Shown here: positions 1-7,044 of the stretch, in pieces
How the letters are laid out: every line of letters starts with the position of its first letter
Position numbering within the stretch: position 1 is the first letter of the stretch
NCBI GenBank assembly: GCA_030042755.1
Contig: JASHZC010000005.1
Coordinates: 1 to 7,044, forward strand
DNA: 7,044 nt
Source of the DNA: Vulcanimicrobiota bacterium
Lineage (GTDB): Bacteria; Eremiobacterota; Eremiobacteria; Baltobacterales; Baltobacteraceae
Direction of reading: 5' to 3'
The notes under the pieces: model-generated
What the model saw: only the letters and a program-made list of their open reading frames with translations
What the model was told of the DNA's origin: nothing
The model's database searches: none
Position numbers and translations under genes: made by a program

Positions 1-225
<225 letters not shown>

Positions 226-281: not shown

Positions 282-310
282 AGTTTATCGCACGGGGAGG
301 AAGTATGCAA
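282..310 (-). promoter_or_regulatory. Possible sigma-70-type promoter for rpoC
   Basis: On the minus strand TTGCAT (310-305) and TAAACT (287-282) are separated by exactly 17 bases. The -10 box matches TATAAT at four of six positions; the -35 box matches only the TTG of TTGACA. Transcription would begin near 275 and leave an rpoC leader of about 130 bases that contains the inverted repeat and both CGTAAGGGG elements. The -35 box would overlap the kinase start codon. This is a weak match offered because rpoC needs a promoter here if it is not behind rpoB. Confidence 0.3.
294..303 (+). promoter_or_regulatory. Ribosome binding site of the glycerate kinase gene
   Basis: GGGGAGGAAG contains a strong GGAGG core (296-300) four bases before the ATG at 305. 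It is the best Shine-Dalgarno sequence in the window and fixes the kinase start. Confidence 0.8.
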
Positions 311-1570
311 TGGACGCCACCCGCACTGCGCGGCGCACTACGCGCCATTTTCGACGCGGCCGTAGCCAGTGCCGACCCGCGCCGCGTCTTGGCCGCTCAT
401 CTACCCGAGCCTGCGCCTGGTCGTACGATCGTCGTGGGAGCCGGCAAGTCGGCGGCGCTCATGGCCGCGGCGCTGGAGGCCGCTTGGCCGGACGTTCGCC
501 TAGAAGGGCTGGTCGCGACGCCATACGGGCACGCCGTCCCGACTAAAAGCATCGAGGTTATTGAAGCGGCGCATCCGGTTCCGGATGAAAACAGCGAGCT
601 CGCCGCTACGCGCATGCTCGAACTGGTTCGCGGTCTCTCCGACCGCGATCTCGTCGTCGCATTGATGTCGGGCGGCGGATCCTCGGTGCTCGCCAAGCCG
701 GCACCCGGTCTCATGTTGGAAGACAAACAGGTTGTCGCGGCGCAGTTGCTGGCGTCGGGCGCGACGATCCACGAGATGAACGTCGTGCGCAAGCACATTT
801 CGGCCATCAAAGGTGGCAGACTCGCCCAAGCCGCGTCGCCGGCAAACGTCGTGACGCTTGCAATCAGCGATATCCCCGGCGACGACCCCGCGACGATTGC
901 AAGCGGACCAACCTTACCGGATTCAAGCACGCTCGCCGACGTTCGTGACATCGTCGAACGCTATGCGCTCCATCTTCCGATCGCCGTGTCGGCATATCTC
1001 GAGAATGCAGCGGAAACGCCGAATCCGGACGAGCTTTCGGGTGACGCGCGACTGATTGCGACGCCGATGCTCGCTCTGCAAGCTGCCGCCGAAATCGCGC
1101 AATCGTTCGGATTGCAGCCGCTGATTCTTGGCGAGCTCGAAGGCGAGAGCCGCGAACTTGGCGTCGTCATGGCCGGCATCGCGCGGAGCGTGCGCGTACA
1201 CGATATACCGATACGCGTCCCGGCTGCAATCTTGTCGGGCGGCGAAACGGTCGTCACTATCGGCCACGGACGCGCTGGACGCGGCGGCCGCAATCTCGAG
1301 TTTCTTTTGAGCCTGGCGATTGCGCTCGACGGCGCACCGGGAATTTGGGCGATCGCCGGCGACACCGATGGGCGCGACGGAACCGACAACGCTGCGGGGG
1401 CGATTATTGCGCCCGACACGTTGCAGCGAGCGCGAAGCGCCGGGCTCGATGCGCGCGCCTTGCTCGACGGTCACGACAGCTATACGTTTTTCGACGCCCT
1501 TGGCGACTTGGTCGTCACCGGACCTACGCTCATGAATGTTAACGCGCTACGCGTCCTGGTCATCGTGTAG
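305..1570 (+). CDS. gckA: Glycerate 2-kinase, MOFRL family
   Basis: This 421-residue cytosolic enzyme belongs to the class that phosphorylates D-glycerate with ATP to 2-phosphoglycerate, feeding carbon from glyoxylate, hydroxypyruvate or serine into glycolysis. The N-terminal domain (DUF4147 type) shows GAGKSA at 45-50, with K48 matching the conserved active-site lysine, AAHPVPDE at 88-95 and the glycine-rich SGGGSS at 122-127. The C-terminal MOFRL domain shows LSGGET (310-315), GRGGRN (325-330), DTDGRDGTDNAAGA (353-366), HDSYTFF (390-396) and TGPTLMNVNAL (405-415). The length and order are those of the family, and the start is fixed by a strong GGAGG. Two residues in the last motif differ from the usual TGPTGTNVNDL. 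Older annotations of this family as hydroxypyruvate reductase (TtuD) are generally considered misassignments. The following gene starts 23 bp downstream but may have its own promoter. Confidence 0.93.
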   Translation: MQWTPPALRGALRAIFDAAVASADPRRVLAAHLPEPAPGRTIVVGAGKSAALMAAALEAAWPDVRLEGLVATPYGHAVPTKSIEVIEAAHPVPDENSELAATRMLELVRGLSDRDLVVALMSGGGSSVLAKPAPGLMLEDKQVVAAQLLASGATIHEMNVVRKHISAIKGGRLAQAASPANVVTLAISDIPGDDPATIASGPTLPDSSTLADVRDIVERYALHLPIAVSAYLENAAETPNPDELSGDARLIATPMLALQAAAEIAQSFGLQPLILGELEGESRELGVVMAGIARSVRVHDIPIRVPAAILSGGETVVTIGHGRAGRGGRNLEFLLSLAIALDGAPGIWAIAGDTDGRDGTDNAAGAIIAPDTLQRARSAGLDARALLDGHDSYTFFDALGDLVVTGPTLMNVNALRVLVIV

Positions 1571-2142: not shown

Positions 2143-4968
2143 CTAGCGTGCCTCGGTTCGCACTAAGAGCACTCGCAGCGTCGTCGGGCCGTACGGGATA
2201 TTTCCGCGCAAACCAGCCTCACCGTTGATGAGTGGAGCCGGGATCGCCGCCGAGTTCACACCGTACAGTACGTATCTTAGCGCGTTGGCATCGAACACGT
2301 TATCTGCGGAAACCTGGATCGCGGTGTTTGCGGCAACGGGTTGCCGGAAGGTCGCGCTGCCGACGAAAAACGCCGGTATGTTGAACGTATTGTTCGACCC
2401 GTAGTATGTCAGTCCGAGCTCGGCGAATTGCCCCCACACACCGCGGCGATGGATCGCAGCATAACCCATCGAGTAGGCTTCGCTTTTGTTTGATATACCG
2501 TTGTACCCACTGCCGTTCGAATAATAATTGATGCCGGGAACGACGGCGAGGTTCGTCGTGTACACTCCCGCAGCGCTGAGATAGAAGTTCCCGGAGATGT
2601 TGTATGCGTAGGCTCGTGCAAGATCGCCGGACACGATATAGCCGTAGCCGACGGGTGGATCGCGGCGTAACGCCAGCTCGACACCCTCGTACCGGCTTTG
2701 CGCGAGGTTCTCGTTCGTGCTGGAATATACCGGATAGCCGTCATACGTGGTTCCCGTGTCGGTAATCGACGTTGCGAACTGGTTCCAGATGTTGGTGAGA
2801 TAGGTGTCGAGCGAAACGATGTCGCCGTCCCGCAAGCGCGCGTCCGCACCAACGTCGTAGGCAAAGGACGTTTCGGGCCGCAACGTGCCGGAATTCTTGG
2901 AGACCGTGATCGTTCCGTCAGATGGAGTCACCTCCGCCGGTGTCGTCGTGTTGTTGTCGATGAGCGACGGATAGGGCGGCGCGATCGACGAGCCCGTGGA
3001 GAATCGGATCGCGAGGTTTGGCGTAGCGCGGTACACGTATCCCAGGCGCGGATCATCGTGCGTCGTGGTTGACGTTGAAAAGTCGAACGTCGTATCCGTT
3101 GGGGAGGTCGGAGCGTACGTCGAGCGATAGACGTTGTAGTAGTTCGCGAGCGTCAGCTGCCCTTTCTCGCCGATCTGTAAGACGCCGCGGAGGAGATAGT
3201 TACTGAAATCCTGCCGCGTTCCCGGCGCAATCGAGTACTGGGTTGCGCCGGTCCCGCCGGCAATCTTGTACGAGTCCGTGAGCATCGTGTCTAAGTCGTA
3301 CGCGGCGCTAATAAGATCGTCGCCGATGGGATGATCGTATTCGAACGATGAGCCGTGCAGGTAATCGTGATCGCCCATGTTGTTGGTGTAAGCGTCGACT
3401 GCGGGAATAGTTACCAGTGCGGTCTGCCCGTCGAAAGGCGTGAGCGCGCCGTTGAGCTTAACGTTTCCATAGAGTTGAAGCGGAACCGTGTACGACTCGA
3501 AGGGATCGCTGGCATCCGAAACCGTCTGACGTTCCAAGACGGCGCTATAGTAGCGAGCCAGAAATGTGTCGTTGCCGAGCCCGGTGCGCAACTCGCTCTC
3601 GAACATCGGCTCGTTGTCGTACACTACCTGATCGGGTAGCGTCGTCGTCGTATTGAGCAAGAACTGACCGCCGTTTACGAACGGTCCCGCGTTCCCGAAA
3701 CCCGTTCCGGGCGCGAACGTGGAATAGATCTGCGAGAGGCCGGAAGCGGGACCGTTATATTGTCCCTGGATGCCGACATAGCCCGCAGTGAACGTCGTGA
3801 CGTTTGAGAAGTGATAGGCGAGCTTGGCCAATTCGCCGTTGCTTTGGTACGTCGAGGTGACGTCCTGACAGCAGGCCACAAGCTTTGCATAGGCGGCTGA
3901 GGGATTGCCCGCGGCGTTCTTCACTGGGTACGACCCGGAATATCCGCTCGGCGCGGTGCTGCTGGTTGTGGATGCGCCGATCGGCGTTCCGTTGATGAGC
4001 GTGTCGTTCGCCGCATTCGAAGAATACGGAAGGGTCACGTACGTCGGGTATGTGTCGAGCGGTCCGTTCGTTCCGTTCCTAACGAGTGAGACGAGATATC
4101 CAAGCCTCCCGCGATCGATCGTATCCGACATACGCAGTTCCAAGAATGCACCCTGCTGATTGTCGAAGCCCGCGACCAACGTACCCGTCGGCGTCATCGT
4201 TGGCTCGCCCGTCACGAAATTGAGCGTACCGCCTATTCCGTAGTTGATCTCGTTCGCATACGCGGTCGGCCCCTTGACGACTTCCACGTCGGAGAACAAC
4301 AGCGAGTTGACGAGCATCGTCGGATAGTCGCCCTTTGCGCCGTTGATCAGCGGGTGGCCGTCGATGAGCGTCGACTTTTCGTAATCGAGCGCGCCTCGAA
4401 GATTCGGCGATGTGATCGATCCGGGCGCAGCCGCGTCGGAACTGTCGGGCCGAGCAGAGACGACGCCGGGAATCTGATCGAGAACGTGACCGATCTGAAG
4501 CTGCCCTTGATCGATGAAGGACTGCTGCGAGAGCGTTTGAATCGCCGACGCGCTGGTGTTGAAGGAGCTTCCCGCGCTCGTCCGTACGGATGCGATCTGC
4601 TTCATCGTATCAAGCGTCGAGGGTACGAGCGTCACGTCGAGCTCACGTCCGGGTACGATAAATCCGCCGTATGCCCAGCGCTGAAATCCGCCTTTGCTCA
4701 CGATCACGTCGTACGATCCGGCCGGCACGTTGGCGATCGTAAATGCGCCGTTCGCGTCGGTCCGCACGGTCGCTGCGCGCGCCGGTCGAATTGCGACGGT
4801 CGCACCTGCGACGGGATCGCCACCGAGTTGACGGACCGACCCGGCGATCGCGAAACTCGTTTGCGCCTGCGCTCGAGCAAGCGTGCTCGCGATAAAGGGA
4901 ACAGCGACCAGAGAAAACACTAGGCATTTGATGAACGTGCGATGCGCTCTCATTCTGTTAGCCTTCAT
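2143..4968 (-). CDS. TonB-dependent receptor with N-terminal carboxypeptidase-regulatory-like domain
   Basis: This is an outer-membrane active transporter driven by TonB/ExbBD; its substrate is unknown. From the ATG at 4968 it has 941 residues. A Sec signal peptide has a basic start, a hydrophobic core (16-31) and a cleavage site after ARAQA (35). A beta-sandwich domain of the CarboxypepD_reg type spans about 39-116 (TVRTDANGAF at 67-76, NVPAGSYDVIVSK at 80-92). A linker with FN (136-137) and DQGQ (153-156) leads to the plug: IPGV (166-169), IDG (202-204), VEVVKG (228-233) and GGTLNF (246-251). The rest is a 22-strand-type barrel rich in Tyr, Asn, Ser and Thr. The only mature cysteines are the pair 366-367. 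The chain ends LRVLLVRTEAR, without the usual terminal phenylalanine. An upstream ATG at 5019 would run into the divergent gene; ATG 4953 (936 residues) is also possible. Confidence 0.93.
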   Translation of the reverse strand: MKANRMRAHRTFIKCLVFSLVAVPFIASTLARAQAQTSFAIAGSVRQLGGDPVAGATVAIRPARAATVRTDANGAFTIANVPAGSYDVIVSKGGFQRWAYGGFIVPGRELDVTLVPSTLDTMKQIASVRTSAGSSFNTSASAIQTLSQQSFIDQGQLQIGHVLDQIPGVVSARPDSSDAAAPGSITSPNLRGALDYEKSTLIDGHPLINGAKGDYPTMLVNSLLFSDVEVVKGPTAYANEINYGIGGTLNFVTGEPTMTPTGTLVAGFDNQQGAFLELRMSDTIDRGRLGYLVSLVRNGTNGPLDTYPTYVTLPYSSNAANDTLINGTPIGASTTSSTAPSGYSGSYPVKNAAGNPSAAYAKLVACCQDVTSTYQSNGELAKLAYHFSNVTTFTAGYVGIQGQYNGPASGLSQIYSTFAPGTGFGNAGPFVNGGQFLLNTTTTLPDQVVYDNEPMFESELRTGLGNDTFLARYYSAVLERQTVSDASDPFESYTVPLQLYGNVKLNGALTPFDGQTALVTIPAVDAYTNNMGDHDYLHGSSFEYDHPIGDDLISAAYDLDTMLTDSYKIAGGTGATQYSIAPGTRQDFSNYLLRGVLQIGEKGQLTLANYYNVYRSTYAPTSPTDTTFDFSTSTTTHDDPRLGYVYRATPNLAIRFSTGSSIAPPYPSLIDNNTTTPAEVTPSDGTITVSKNSGTLRPETSFAYDVGADARLRDGDIVSLDTYLTNIWNQFATSITDTGTTYDGYPVYSSTNENLAQSRYEGVELALRRDPPVGYGYIVSGDLARAYAYNISGNFYLSAAGVYTTNLAVVPGINYYSNGSGYNGISNKSEAYSMGYAAIHRRGVWGQFAELGLTYYGSNNTFNIPAFFVGSATFRQPVAANTAIQVSADNVFDANALRYVLYGVNSAAIPAPLINGEAGLRGNIPYGPTTLRVLLVRTEAR
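4931..4968. other. Head-to-head overlap of two divergent receptor genes
   Basis: The plus-strand receptor begins with ATG at 4931 and the minus-strand receptor with ATG at 4968, so 38 bp are coding on both strands and give signal-peptide residues in each direction. With the alternative minus start at 4953 the overlap is 23 bp. The only way to remove it is a GTG start at 4920 for the minus gene, which would delete the basic n-region of its signal peptide. Promoters of each gene must then lie inside the other gene's coding sequence; I found no convincing pair of boxes there. Confidence 0.6.
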
Positions 4969-7044
4969 TACCTTTCCATTCCGGGTCGATGCGGCACCAA
5001 GCATTGTCATCCACGTCATCGATCCCAGCCGCGTTCCGATAAGCGGAGCGAGGATTGAACTCGTCGGCGCGTCGACTCAAACAGGAACGACCGATCCGCG
5101 GGGAATCGTGCGGATGACGTTCGCACGCCCGGGGAAGCATCAGTTGCGTGTTAGCGCGATGGGTTTTCACGACTTCTCGGAAATCGTCGCGCTCGACGAT
5201 CAAAAATCCATCACCATCACGCTTCGGCCGTCCGCGGGGAGCCTTGGTGTCATCGGTTCGGTCACGGGCCACGCGCGTACGCCATTCAACGCAACGCCGG
5301 TCTCGCAGAAAGTTTATCCTCGCGAGGCATACCGCGATCAGGGTCAGCCGTCGGTCGCGAGCGTAATAAATCAAACGCCGGGAGTCCTTGCGCTGACGAG
5401 TACGTCGACCAACGCCGCGGCGCCACTCGCTCCGGCCTTCCCTTCCGTACGAAATGCTTTGCCGTTCGAAACGCCCGTGCTGATCGACGGTGCGCCGATC
5501 CTCACGCCGAGCGGCACCCTCGATCTCGCGCTGATTCCCACCTACGTTTTGGAAGAAGTCGAGATCGTCAAAGGAGCGGGCGACGTTGCCGGTGCCGGCG
5601 GCGGGGTTGGCGGCGCGATCAATTTTCGTACCGCCGATCCGACTCTTGGCTCGCGTGGAACGTACGAAATCGAGGGTGACTCGCGCGGCGGATCGTTTAC
5701 CGATCTCGCCTACGATGGCACGCAATCCGGAGGCACATTCGCCTACGCGACGATGCTTTCGATCGACGGTTCGCCGTGCTGTTCGCCGTACCCGAGCGAT
5801 TATACGCGGAAAGCCGTCCTCGTCAAGTTGCGCAGCACGCCGACGAGCGGCGTTTCGATAACCGGAACCGTTATGAGCGTTTCCGTGAACCGCTCGCTCT
5901 ACGCAGCCTACGGTCTGCCCGGTTTCGGATACGAGCATCTTGGCTTCGGAGATCTGACGGCGTCGTTGGATCGTGGCGACAACGCTTTCTCGCTGCGCGT
6001 GTTCACCGCGCAGACGCAGCAGGGCTCGGTCTCGCCGAACCTTTTTGACGAACCGGCCGCCGATGAGAACGGAGTCGAACTGAACTGGCGACACGTGACC
6101 GGAAAGGCGGCGTTCGACACAAGTGCTCGCACCATCGGGTCGAGCCTGGCTGGGACCAACGAGGCCCAAACGGTTTCGCTCGGCCGCGAGAGCATCACGT
6201 ATCGTCCCGACGCGCGCAGCGAGATCGATCTTTCCGGCCAAACCGGATCCAATCGCACGCAATTGCGCGACTTCAGCGGAGCGAGCGGACGCGCCGGCTA
6301 CTCGTACGAGCTTCAAGACGGACTCGCCTTGCGAACGTCGTACGGAACGAGCCTCGTGATGCCGCCGCTCGAAACTCTGACCGATGCGGGAGCCTTCACA
6401 AGCGCTATTACCAGCGTGGAACGCACGGCCGGTGGCGACGTCGGTCTCGAATGGCGTTTGCACGGCGGTACGACGACACTCTCGGCAGATTTGTATCGTA
6501 ATGTCACGCAAGGCGTGTACGTTCTCGACGACGACCGTTGGAGCAACGGTCCACCAATGGTCGAGAGCGGCGCCGAACTGGCGCTCCAGCAATTCAAACG
6601 CGTCGGAATGGGCTTCATCGCAGCGCTCGACCTCCCGCGGACGTTCGTCTGGGGAGCGCAAGCGCCGAATCTGTATCCCGCAAGTAATCTCGGTGCGGTC
6701 TTCGGACAGATTGCTCCGTTTCGAATTCCCTACGCGCAGGGATACGCCGAGCTCAGTTACAAGTGGCCGCGCGGTTCGCGCGCTTCCATCGGCGTGCTGT
6801 ATGTCGGCTCGAACAACGTCTACGGTGCACCCGCGTTCGCGACACTCAATTCGAATCTCGAACTTTCGCTCGGTTCGAAAGCGAAATTGCAATTCTCCGT
6901 GCAGAATCTGACCGACCAGCTTGCAAACAGATTGCCGGTCTTTCCCGGCGTTTACGCCGGCGAAGCTCAACCAACATACGGTCTCGAACCGTTTACGCTG
7001 CGTTTCATGTTTCGGCAGTCCTTCGGCGCCGGATCGCTGTACGA
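4931..7044 (+). CDS. TonB-dependent receptor, 3' end beyond the window
   Basis: A second outer-membrane TonB-dependent transporter, open for 704 codons to the window edge. It starts at ATG 4931 with a signal peptide (MNVRCALILLAFITFPF, then cleavage near VDA-AP, residue 21). A CarboxypepD_reg-like domain spans 25-100 (VPISGARIELVG at 35-46, GTTDPRGIVRMTF at 52-64). The linker has FN (119-120) and DQGQ (136-139). The plug has TPGV (149-152), IDG (185-187), VEIVKG (210-215) and GGAINF (227-232). The barrel begins near 245 and the chain stops just after FTLRFMFRQSF, which resembles a last strand, so only a few residues are probably missing. The only mature cysteines are 283-284. The Shine-Dalgarno sequence is weak (AGG at 4922-4924). 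It is shorter than the minus-strand receptor, mostly through smaller loops. The frame was translated through without a stop or shift. A long minus-strand frame over the same DNA is a shadow. Confidence 0.92.
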   Translation, partial: MNVRCALILLAFITFPFRVDAAPSIVIHVIDPSRVPISGARIELVGASTQTGTTDPRGIVRMTFARPGKHQLRVSAMGFHDFSEIVALDDQKSITITLRPSAGSLGVIGSVTGHARTPFNATPVSQKVYPREAYRDQGQPSVASVINQTPGVLALTSTSTNAAAPLAPAFPSVRNALPFETPVLIDGAPILTPSGTLDLALIPTYVLEEVEIVKGAGDVAGAGGGVGGAINFRTADPTLGSRGTYEIEGDSRGGSFTDLAYDGTQSGGTFAYATMLSIDGSPCCSPYPSDYTRKAVLVKLRSTPTSGVSITGTVMSVSVNRSLYAAYGLPGFGYEHLGFGDLTASLDRGDNAFSLRVFTAQTQQGSVSPNLFDEPAADENGVELNWRHVTGKAAFDTSARTIGSSLAGTNEAQTVSLGRESITYRPDARSEIDLSGQTGSNRTQLRDFSGASGRAGYSYELQDGLALRTSYGTSLVMPPLETLTDAGAFTSAITSVERTAGGDVGLEWRLHGGTTTLSADLYRNVTQGVYVLDDDRWSNGPPMVESGAELALQQFKRVGMGFIAALDLPRTFVWGAQAPNLYPASNLGAVFGQIAPFRIPYAQGYAELSYKWPRGSRASIGVLYVGSNNVYGAPAFATLNSNLELSLGSKAKLQFSVQNLTDQLANRLPVFPGVYAGEAQPTYGLEPFTLRFMFRQSFGAGSLY
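4971..4977 (-). promoter_or_regulatory. Ribosome binding site supporting the minus-strand receptor start
   Basis: On the minus strand GGAAAGG precedes the ATG at 4968, with the GGA part six bases and the last GG two bases away. This favours 4968 over the upstream ATG at 5019. The alternative ATG at 4953 has AAGG eight bases ahead (4962-4965), so it remains open. The site lies inside the plus-strand receptor coding sequence. Confidence 0.5.

What the first reader, a model, noticed from the sequence alone, without database searches (positions are those of the whole stretch)
3868..5782. Both receptors carry a lone adjacent cysteine pair at the same aligned position
Each mature protein has exactly two cysteines, and they are neighbours: 366-367 in the minus-strand receptor (codons 3868-3873) and 283-284 in the plus-strand one (codons 5777-5782). 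The surrounding pattern is shared with identical spacing: CC, four residues, S, one, Y, five, L, one, KL. It precedes a predicted barrel strand, so the pair may sit in an extracellular loop. Keeping CC in otherwise very different barrels suggests a function, such as a strained vicinal disulfide, a metal or thiol-reactive ligand site, or a loop lock.
Basis: partly seen in the sequence, partly recalled or inferred. Interest (0 to 1): 0.7.

Follow-up and report, generated by a model that had tools for sequence, protein, structure and literature searches.

The report
Fixed cysteine pair in receptor loop
Two neighbouring outer-membrane uptake receptors of an uncultured bacterium carry the same pair of adjacent cysteines in the same surface loop, an inherited feature of a large receptor family that most likely forms a tight disulfide pinning the loop to the rim of the barrel.

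Summary
Both TonB-dependent receptors have a lone CC pair (3868-3873 minus, 5777-5782 plus). It is a conserved trait of a large Ca. Eremiobacterota receptor clade: kept in 117/120 minus-type and 44/54 plus-type rows, window included. In 238 receptors, all 190 CC pairs share one alignment column. Models put both pairs in extracellular loop L2, just before barrel strand 4. The distance from CC to the beta4 Lys position is 16 residues in 190/190; the distance back to a beta3 column varies from 10 to 82. Cysteines from the plug on are even in 183/187; with the N-terminal domain, in 114/128. In 8 rows with one cysteine left at the site, L2 holds one other. Only 10 of 70 Plug receptors of six genomes have the motif. 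Best reading: an oxidised vicinal disulfide that staples the end of L2 to the barrel rim. Ligand contact is possible (precedent: SusD Bt1762); a metal site is disfavoured. The S-S bond, its geometry and its function are inferred. Class: new variant of a known kind.

The parts
2143..4968 (-). TonB-dependent receptor A (minus), 941 aa: CarboxypepD_reg, Plug, long beta barrel (alternative ATG starts at 5019 and 4953)
   Evidence: model m94e0110f65ce, mean pLDDT 91.8
3868..3873 (-). CC pair, residues 366-367 of receptor A
   Evidence: 117 of 120 rows keep CC
3850..4068 (-). extracellular loop L2 of receptor A (residues 301-373, between strand beta3 289-300 and beta4 374-386); CC lies in a short strand 363-370
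   Evidence: block pLDDT 97 for residues 361-370
3823..3825 (-). beta4 lysine K382, 16 residues after the first Cys
   Evidence: invariant in A1; spacing 16 in 190 of 190
4931..7042 (+). TonB-dependent receptor B (plus), 704 aa in the window, C-terminal end cut by the window edge
   Evidence: model m3a0b51e03a6b, mean pLDDT 81.8
5777..5782 (+). CC pair, residues 283-284 of receptor B
   Evidence: 44 of 54 rows keep CC
5738..5845 (+). beta3 (270-280), short loop L2 (281-291) with CC, beta4 (292-305) of receptor B
   Evidence: block pLDDT 54 for residues 281-290
5825..5827 (+). beta4 lysine K299, 16 residues after the first Cys

Best explanation
The CC pair is an ancestral element of a large clade of Eremiobacterota TonB-dependent receptors. 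It sits at the C-terminal end of extracellular loop L2, in rigid register with barrel strand beta4. It is most likely oxidised to a vicinal (eight-membered ring) disulfide. Its main job would be structural: the tight, stiff kink fixes the returning arm of L2 against the top of beta4, so that L2, whose length before the pair varies widely, always re-enters the barrel rim in the same pose over the substrate opening. Shown by computation: conservation, one alignment column, fixed spacing to beta4, predicted loop, mostly even cysteine totals, mostly joint loss. Inferred: the S-S bond, the rigidity, and any contact with the substrate.
For: Conservation: 117 of 120 minus-type rows, 44 of 54 plus-type rows, 55 of 55 new proteins of a third search (its query stretch held the pair, so this sample leans towards it). 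One site: all 190 CC pairs of 238 receptors fall in column 555. Register: first Cys to the beta4 Lys position is 16 residues in 190 of 190 (189 also by an ungapped pattern), while a fixed beta3 column to CC runs from 10 to 82. Location: L2 in both models. Pair as a unit: in 187 CC receptors with 560 or more residues from the plug on, Cys from the plug on is even in 183, and in 92 the pair is all; the others come mostly in close pairs, as loop disulfides would. Swap: in all 8 rows with exactly one Cys at the site, L2 holds exactly one other Cys. VKOR, a disulfide-forming enzyme family, is found in 7 of 12 related genomes. In 62 receptors read at DNA level the pair stays CC while its codons vary between TGC and TGT.
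Against: In the minus model CC lies inside a continuous strand (363-370), where neighbouring side chains normally point to opposite faces, which does not favour a 1-2 disulfide. In the plus model the loop is poorly predicted. Counted after residue 40, so with the N-terminal domain, Cys totals are even in only 114 of 128 P-list and window rows; 12 rows have one Cys in that domain, which is periplasmic by standard topology and so no likely partner of L2. DsbB was found in 0 of 12 genomes and VKOR in only 7 of 12. CC is dispensable: 21 rows inside the smallest clade that holds all CC receptors lack it. Five of them keep the 16-residue spacing with A-G, S-G or T-G in its place.
Confidence: 0.57

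Rival explanations
1. The vicinal disulfide is a flat hydrophobic platform that touches the substrate, perhaps the undecorated face of a sugar ring, as in the SusD-type lid Bt1762.
For: Precedent: Bt1762 C298-C299 contacts bound fructo-oligosaccharide and C298A abolishes levan binding in vitro (PMC7782687, passages). [quoted passage not shown] Minus-type receptors (49-71% identity) sit by GH3/NagZ-like genes in 10 of 13 loci of at least 9 kb, 9 of these also with AnmK, and some with MurQ-like, GH20 or BadF-type genes, which suggests an amino-sugar or muropeptide substrate. In one loss lineage a Tyr stands just before the CC position.
Against: CC is kept in many receptors whose loci lack these genes and whose barrels differ widely, so one ligand cannot explain it. 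The closest relatives with flanks of that size (L149, L151) lack the cluster. The fixed register to beta4 points to geometry rather than to a ligand. In PMC7782687 another residue that abolishes binding in vitro, W85, could be changed without a growth defect.
Confidence: 0.2
2. Reduced thiol pair that binds a soft metal or a thiol-reactive ligand, comparable to the Cys-containing copper site of OprC.
For: A TonB-dependent receptor with an external CxxxM-HxM copper site exists (OprC; PMC8610252 and PMC11836926, search listing and abstract starts). Adjacent Cys can bind soft metals (recalled). A His at minus residue 637 (112 of 190 CC receptors), by my strand count towards the extracellular end of a strand, could be a partner in some.
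Against: Neither window protein has CxxxM at the pair. The His at minus 637 is Gly in the window plus receptor, and the plug His 205 (139 of 190) is Ala there. The only His column of the four checked that is His in both window receptors (minus 546, 167 of 190) lies at what I read as a periplasmic turn. No Met column reaches 30%. Rows with one Cys left have a second L2 Cys.
Confidence: 0.11
3. The cysteines make disulfides to another chain (a surface lipoprotein or a second receptor) rather than to each other.
For: In 92 of 187 receptors the pair is the only Cys from the plug on, so partners in other chains are formally possible; the strand-like model conformation would allow it.
Against: In the 14 loci (window included) whose neighbours were clustered, no gene other than receptors was common to all. 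Sister receptors have a C...C pair within the same loop.
Confidence: 0.07

Closest known systems
TonB-dependent transporters (PF07715 Plug, PF00593 barrel) with an N-terminal carboxypeptidase-regulatory-like domain
   Different: In the sequence search of PDB the best stretches end before the pair (profile position 339 or lower for A1, 221 or lower for A2). None of the papers listed reports, in title or abstract start, a conserved CC in a barrel loop
SusD-type lid Bt1762 of the levan SusCD transporter, vicinal disulfide Cys298-Cys299
   Same: Adjacent cysteines on the extracellular side of a TonB-dependent uptake complex (PMC7782687, passages)
   Different: There the pair is on the lipoprotein lid and contacts the glycan; here it is in the barrel's own L2 and bond and ligand are unproven
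OprC copper receptor, CxxxM-HxM site
   Same: External cysteine-based site in a TonB-dependent receptor (abstract start in listing)
   Different: No CxxxM at the pair and no Met column kept with it

Membership tests
TonB-dependent transporter | Plug domain PF07715 above cut-off | tested here: met
   40.2 bits (minus) and 43.3 bits (plus) against cut-off 23.9
TonB-dependent transporter | C-terminal beta barrel closing on the plug | tested here: met
   PF00593 40.4 bits in plus; minus has no PF00593 hit but its model aligns to BtuB over 531 residues
TonB-dependent transporter | TonB-dependent uptake of a ligand | not testable with these tools
   needs an experiment
Vicinal disulfide proteins | two sequence-adjacent cysteines | tested here: met
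   conserved
Vicinal disulfide proteins | S-S bond between the two | tested here: inconclusive
   even totals from the plug on and the single-Cys swap argue for it; the strand assignment across CC argues against; coordinates not available
SusD-like ligand-contact vicinal disulfide | disulfide touches bound substrate | not testable with these tools
   no ligand known, no complex
OprC-type copper site | CxxxM with HxM | tested here: not met
   residue four after each Cys is V370/T371 (minus) and Y287/P288 (plus); no Met column reaches 30% among 190 CC receptors

The most novel reading that the evidence does not exclude
A clade-wide strained vicinal disulfide in L2 acts as a moving part of the transporter: its cis/trans or redox state, or its contact with the substrate, re-poses the L2 arm over the opening, so a large family of receptors for different substrates shares one switchable gate element.
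Probability: 0.12. Interest if true: 0.75.

Novelty: new variant of a known kind. Interest (0 to 1): 0.45.

Why it matters
Extracellular loops of TonB-dependent receptors usually diverge fast (established knowledge). Here one loop element is held at a fixed distance from a barrel strand through a diverse clade while the stretch before it varies from 10 to 82 residues. If the bond is real, it gives a simple testable handle (two cysteines, none other in the mature window proteins by my reading) on how L2 is posed and whether it moves in transport, and it adds to the few known functional vicinal disulfides. It is also a candidate sequence signature (CC, then the beta4 Lys 16 residues on) for recognising this receptor clade in metagenomes.

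Tried and rejected
Convergence between two unrelated receptors: disfavoured, the pairs share one column and the tree needs 9 changes against a shuffled mean of 44 (FastTree with long-branch warnings, and counts of changes cannot tell gain from loss). The alignment saw the cysteines themselves, so the ungapped spacing (189 of 190) is the more independent check. DQGQ as predictor of CC: rejected. CC as a feature of all Eremiobacterota receptors: rejected, 10 of 70 examined of 71 Plug matches in six genomes; one match was not fetched, and the six genomes were chosen because they carry relatives. CC tied to an amino-sugar gene cluster: only minus-type loci plus L162 and L163 hold those genes, not the other CC loci listed. 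A first count of CC by a plug-end pattern missed 84 of 335 rows and was replaced by HMM-based placing. A tblastn of P0117 against plasmids found nothing. The third protein search, which I hoped would leave the phylum, returned 57 proteins: P0174 and P0175, already held, and 55 new ones, all with the pair. Whether CC occurs outside Eremiobacterota is open: I obtained no genome handle of another phylum. Passages of PMC10875860 held nothing of use.

Selection of rows: 335 sequences were thinned to 239 by dropping any that shared an identical 60-residue stretch with one already kept; one more could not be scored. The loci were found with a CC-rich alignment, so 190 of 238 is not an unbiased frequency. 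3 of the 190 CC rows were too short for the cysteine count; some others are cut at contig or locus ends, so later cysteines may be unseen. The four odd totals there are P0113, P0097, P0057 and P0170.

Full report
WHAT IS THERE. The window encodes a divergent pair of TonB-dependent receptors. Receptor A is on the minus strand (ATG 4968 or 4953, stop ending at 2143). Receptor B is on the plus strand (ATG 4931, running off the window end). Both have a carboxypeptidase-regulatory-like domain and a Plug domain. Each has two adjacent cysteines, 366-367 in A and 283-284 in B, both encoded TGC TGT, at the coordinates given; the only other Cys in each lies in what I read as the signal peptide. The shared pattern CC-x4-S-x-Y-x5-L-x-KL occurs once in each. 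The two receptors are distant paralogues, 28% identical over the first 290 residues and 26% over a later barrel stretch.

CONSERVATION. In the minus-type alignment (the window and the 119 other proteins listed of 164 hits) CC is kept in 117 of 120 rows; the three without it are P0104, P0106 and P0110. In the plus-type alignment (the window and 53 of the 58 listed hits, the five weakest left out) it is kept in 44 of 54. Of the five left out, P0023, P0174 and P0175 have the pair and P0176 and P0177 do not. A third search with part of a distant relative, P0174, brought 55 new proteins, and all 55 carry the pair; the query stretch held it, so the sample leans that way. The genome loci found with the minus-type alignment are titled Candidatus Eremiobacterota or Eremiobacteria, candidate division WPS-2, or just MAG bacterium.

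ONE SITE, FIXED REGISTER. I combined the proteins of the first two searches with receptor ORFs from the fetched loci, thinned them to 239 and scored 238: 190 with CC in L2, 48 without. An alignment from just before the plug to the end puts all 190 CC pairs, including both window pairs, in one column. With L2 masked, the tree needs 9 changes of state against 44 for shuffled labels. Rooted for reading on P0177, the smallest clade that holds all 190 CC receptors has 21 rows without it; gain and loss are not proven by such counts, and the place of the long branch L160 is unsure. Of the 21, 19 have neither Cys at the site and two (L049, L067) keep one. From the first Cys to the beta4 lysine position (Lys in 185, Asp in 5 of 190) is 16 residues in 190 of 190. 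From a fixed column in beta3 to the pair it is 10 to 82 residues, 74 in receptor A and 10 in receptor B. So the pair is tied to beta4 while the rest of the loop is free to change.

LOCATION. The minus model (mean pLDDT 91.8) has beta3 at 289-300, CC in a short strand 363-370 and beta4 at 374-386. The plus model (mean 81.8) has beta3 at 270-280, CC in the coil 281-291 (pLDDT about 54) and beta4 at 292-305. Counting strands from the plug, both are L2, which is extracellular by the standard topology of these receptors (established knowledge). Both models match solved TonB-dependent receptors.

OXIDISED OR FREE. Direct proof is missing. Among 187 CC receptors with 560 or more residues from the plug on, cysteines from the plug on are even in 183; in 92 the pair is all there is, and the others come mostly in close pairs. 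With the N-terminal domain included the parity is weaker: even in 114 of 128 P-list and window rows, with a single Cys in that domain in 12. That domain is periplasmic by standard topology, so it is an unlikely partner. In 8 rows one Cys remains at the site, and every one has exactly one other Cys in L2. Six are in sister families; two, L049 and L067, are inside the CC clade. This looks like a vicinal disulfide traded for an ordinary loop disulfide. VKOR is found in 7 of 12 related genomes, DsbB in none of 12. Against it, the minus model treats 363-370 as continuous strand.

NOT UNIVERSAL. In six genomes that carry such receptors, 70 of the 71 Plug-positive matches were examined and 10 have the CC motif. 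The trait marks a clade, not all receptors of these bacteria. A search of 149 genomes of the phylum found a relative of receptor A at E <= 0.001 in 124; many of these are weak.

WHAT THE RECEPTORS MAY IMPORT. Ten of them (L003, L009, L012, L152, L153, L154, L155, L157, L158, L159) lie by GH3/NagZ-like genes, nine of these also by AnmK (anhydro-MurNAc kinase) and a beta-lactamase-family protein, and some by a SIS-domain MurQ-like gene, GH20 or a BadF-type kinase (in one search the labels GH2 and DUF412 are GH20 and DUF4127 with the last digit stripped; the name MurQ is my reading of SIS-domain hits). L149, L151 and L156 lack them; the shorter L001 and L150 were not counted. Among the other loci listed only L162 and L163 have such genes. 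A peptidoglycan-fragment substrate is therefore plausible for this subgroup, but CC is much wider than this context.

MECHANISM. The simplest account is a structural staple: a vicinal disulfide at a fixed distance from beta4 holds the end of a variable loop in a constant pose. A substrate-contact role has a precedent in the SusD lid Bt1762, where Cys298-Cys299 touches the glycan and C298A abolishes levan binding in vitro (PMC7782687, passages). A paper on cis peptides says vicinal disulfides can bind ligands, stabilise structure or switch conformation (PMC12102755, passages; the Richardson 2017 survey that it cites is not held). A metal site is disfavoured: no Met column reaches 30% among 190 CC receptors, and of the four His columns checked in the window only one (minus 546) is His in both receptors, at what I read as a periplasmic turn.

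NOVELTY. Searches for vicinal disulfide with TonB-dependent, with outer membrane and with SusD, for adjacent cysteines with TonB-dependent, for Eremiobacterota with TonB-dependent and for WPS-2 with TonB and outer membrane list no paper whose title or abstract start reports a conserved CC in a barrel loop. Only listings were seen, apart from passages of PMC7782687 and PMC10875860, and only open-licence papers are held. I class it as a new variant of a known kind.

Noticed in passing
window 4931-4968: The divergent receptor genes overlap at their 5' ends (plus ATG 4931, minus ATG 4953 or 4968), so each promoter or leader would lie inside the other's coding sequence. By my reading the 5' ends are also close or overlapping in L149 (near 10750) and L001 (near 480-517), with non-ATG starts assumed for the plus-type gene.
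   Followed up: partly
window 1-146: Minus strand reads like the N-terminus of RNA polymerase beta' (rpoC); recognised by eye, no search run.
   Followed up: no
window 305-1567 and 1594-2121: Glycerate 2-kinase-like protein (PF13660, PF05161) and a short protein with an F420_oxidored-type NADP-binding domain (PF03807).
   Followed up: partly
L003, L009, L012, L152-L155, L157-L159: Minus-type receptors lie by GH3/NagZ-like genes and mostly AnmK, some with MurQ-like, GH20 or BadF-type genes: a possible peptidoglycan-fragment uptake locus.
   Followed up: partly
L049, L067, L071, L089, L095, L103, L120, L125: Receptors with an ordinary C...C pair in L2, one Cys sitting at the CC site.
   Followed up: yes
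P0080-P0102 among others: 12 of 128 CC receptors have a single Cys in the N-terminal periplasmic domain, many of them in the P0080-P0102 stretch of the list; purpose unknown.
   Followed up: no
P0004, P0010, P0160, P0184, P0204: Family members labelled as other phyla (Alphaproteobacteria, Acidoferrales, Verrucomicrobiae, Dormibacteraeota) in MAG records; perhaps bin labels, but transfer is not excluded.
   Followed up: no
G007, G020, G132 and others: 25 of 149 genomes of the phylum have no match to the minus receptor at E <= 0.001, so the family is patchy in the phylum.
   Followed up: no
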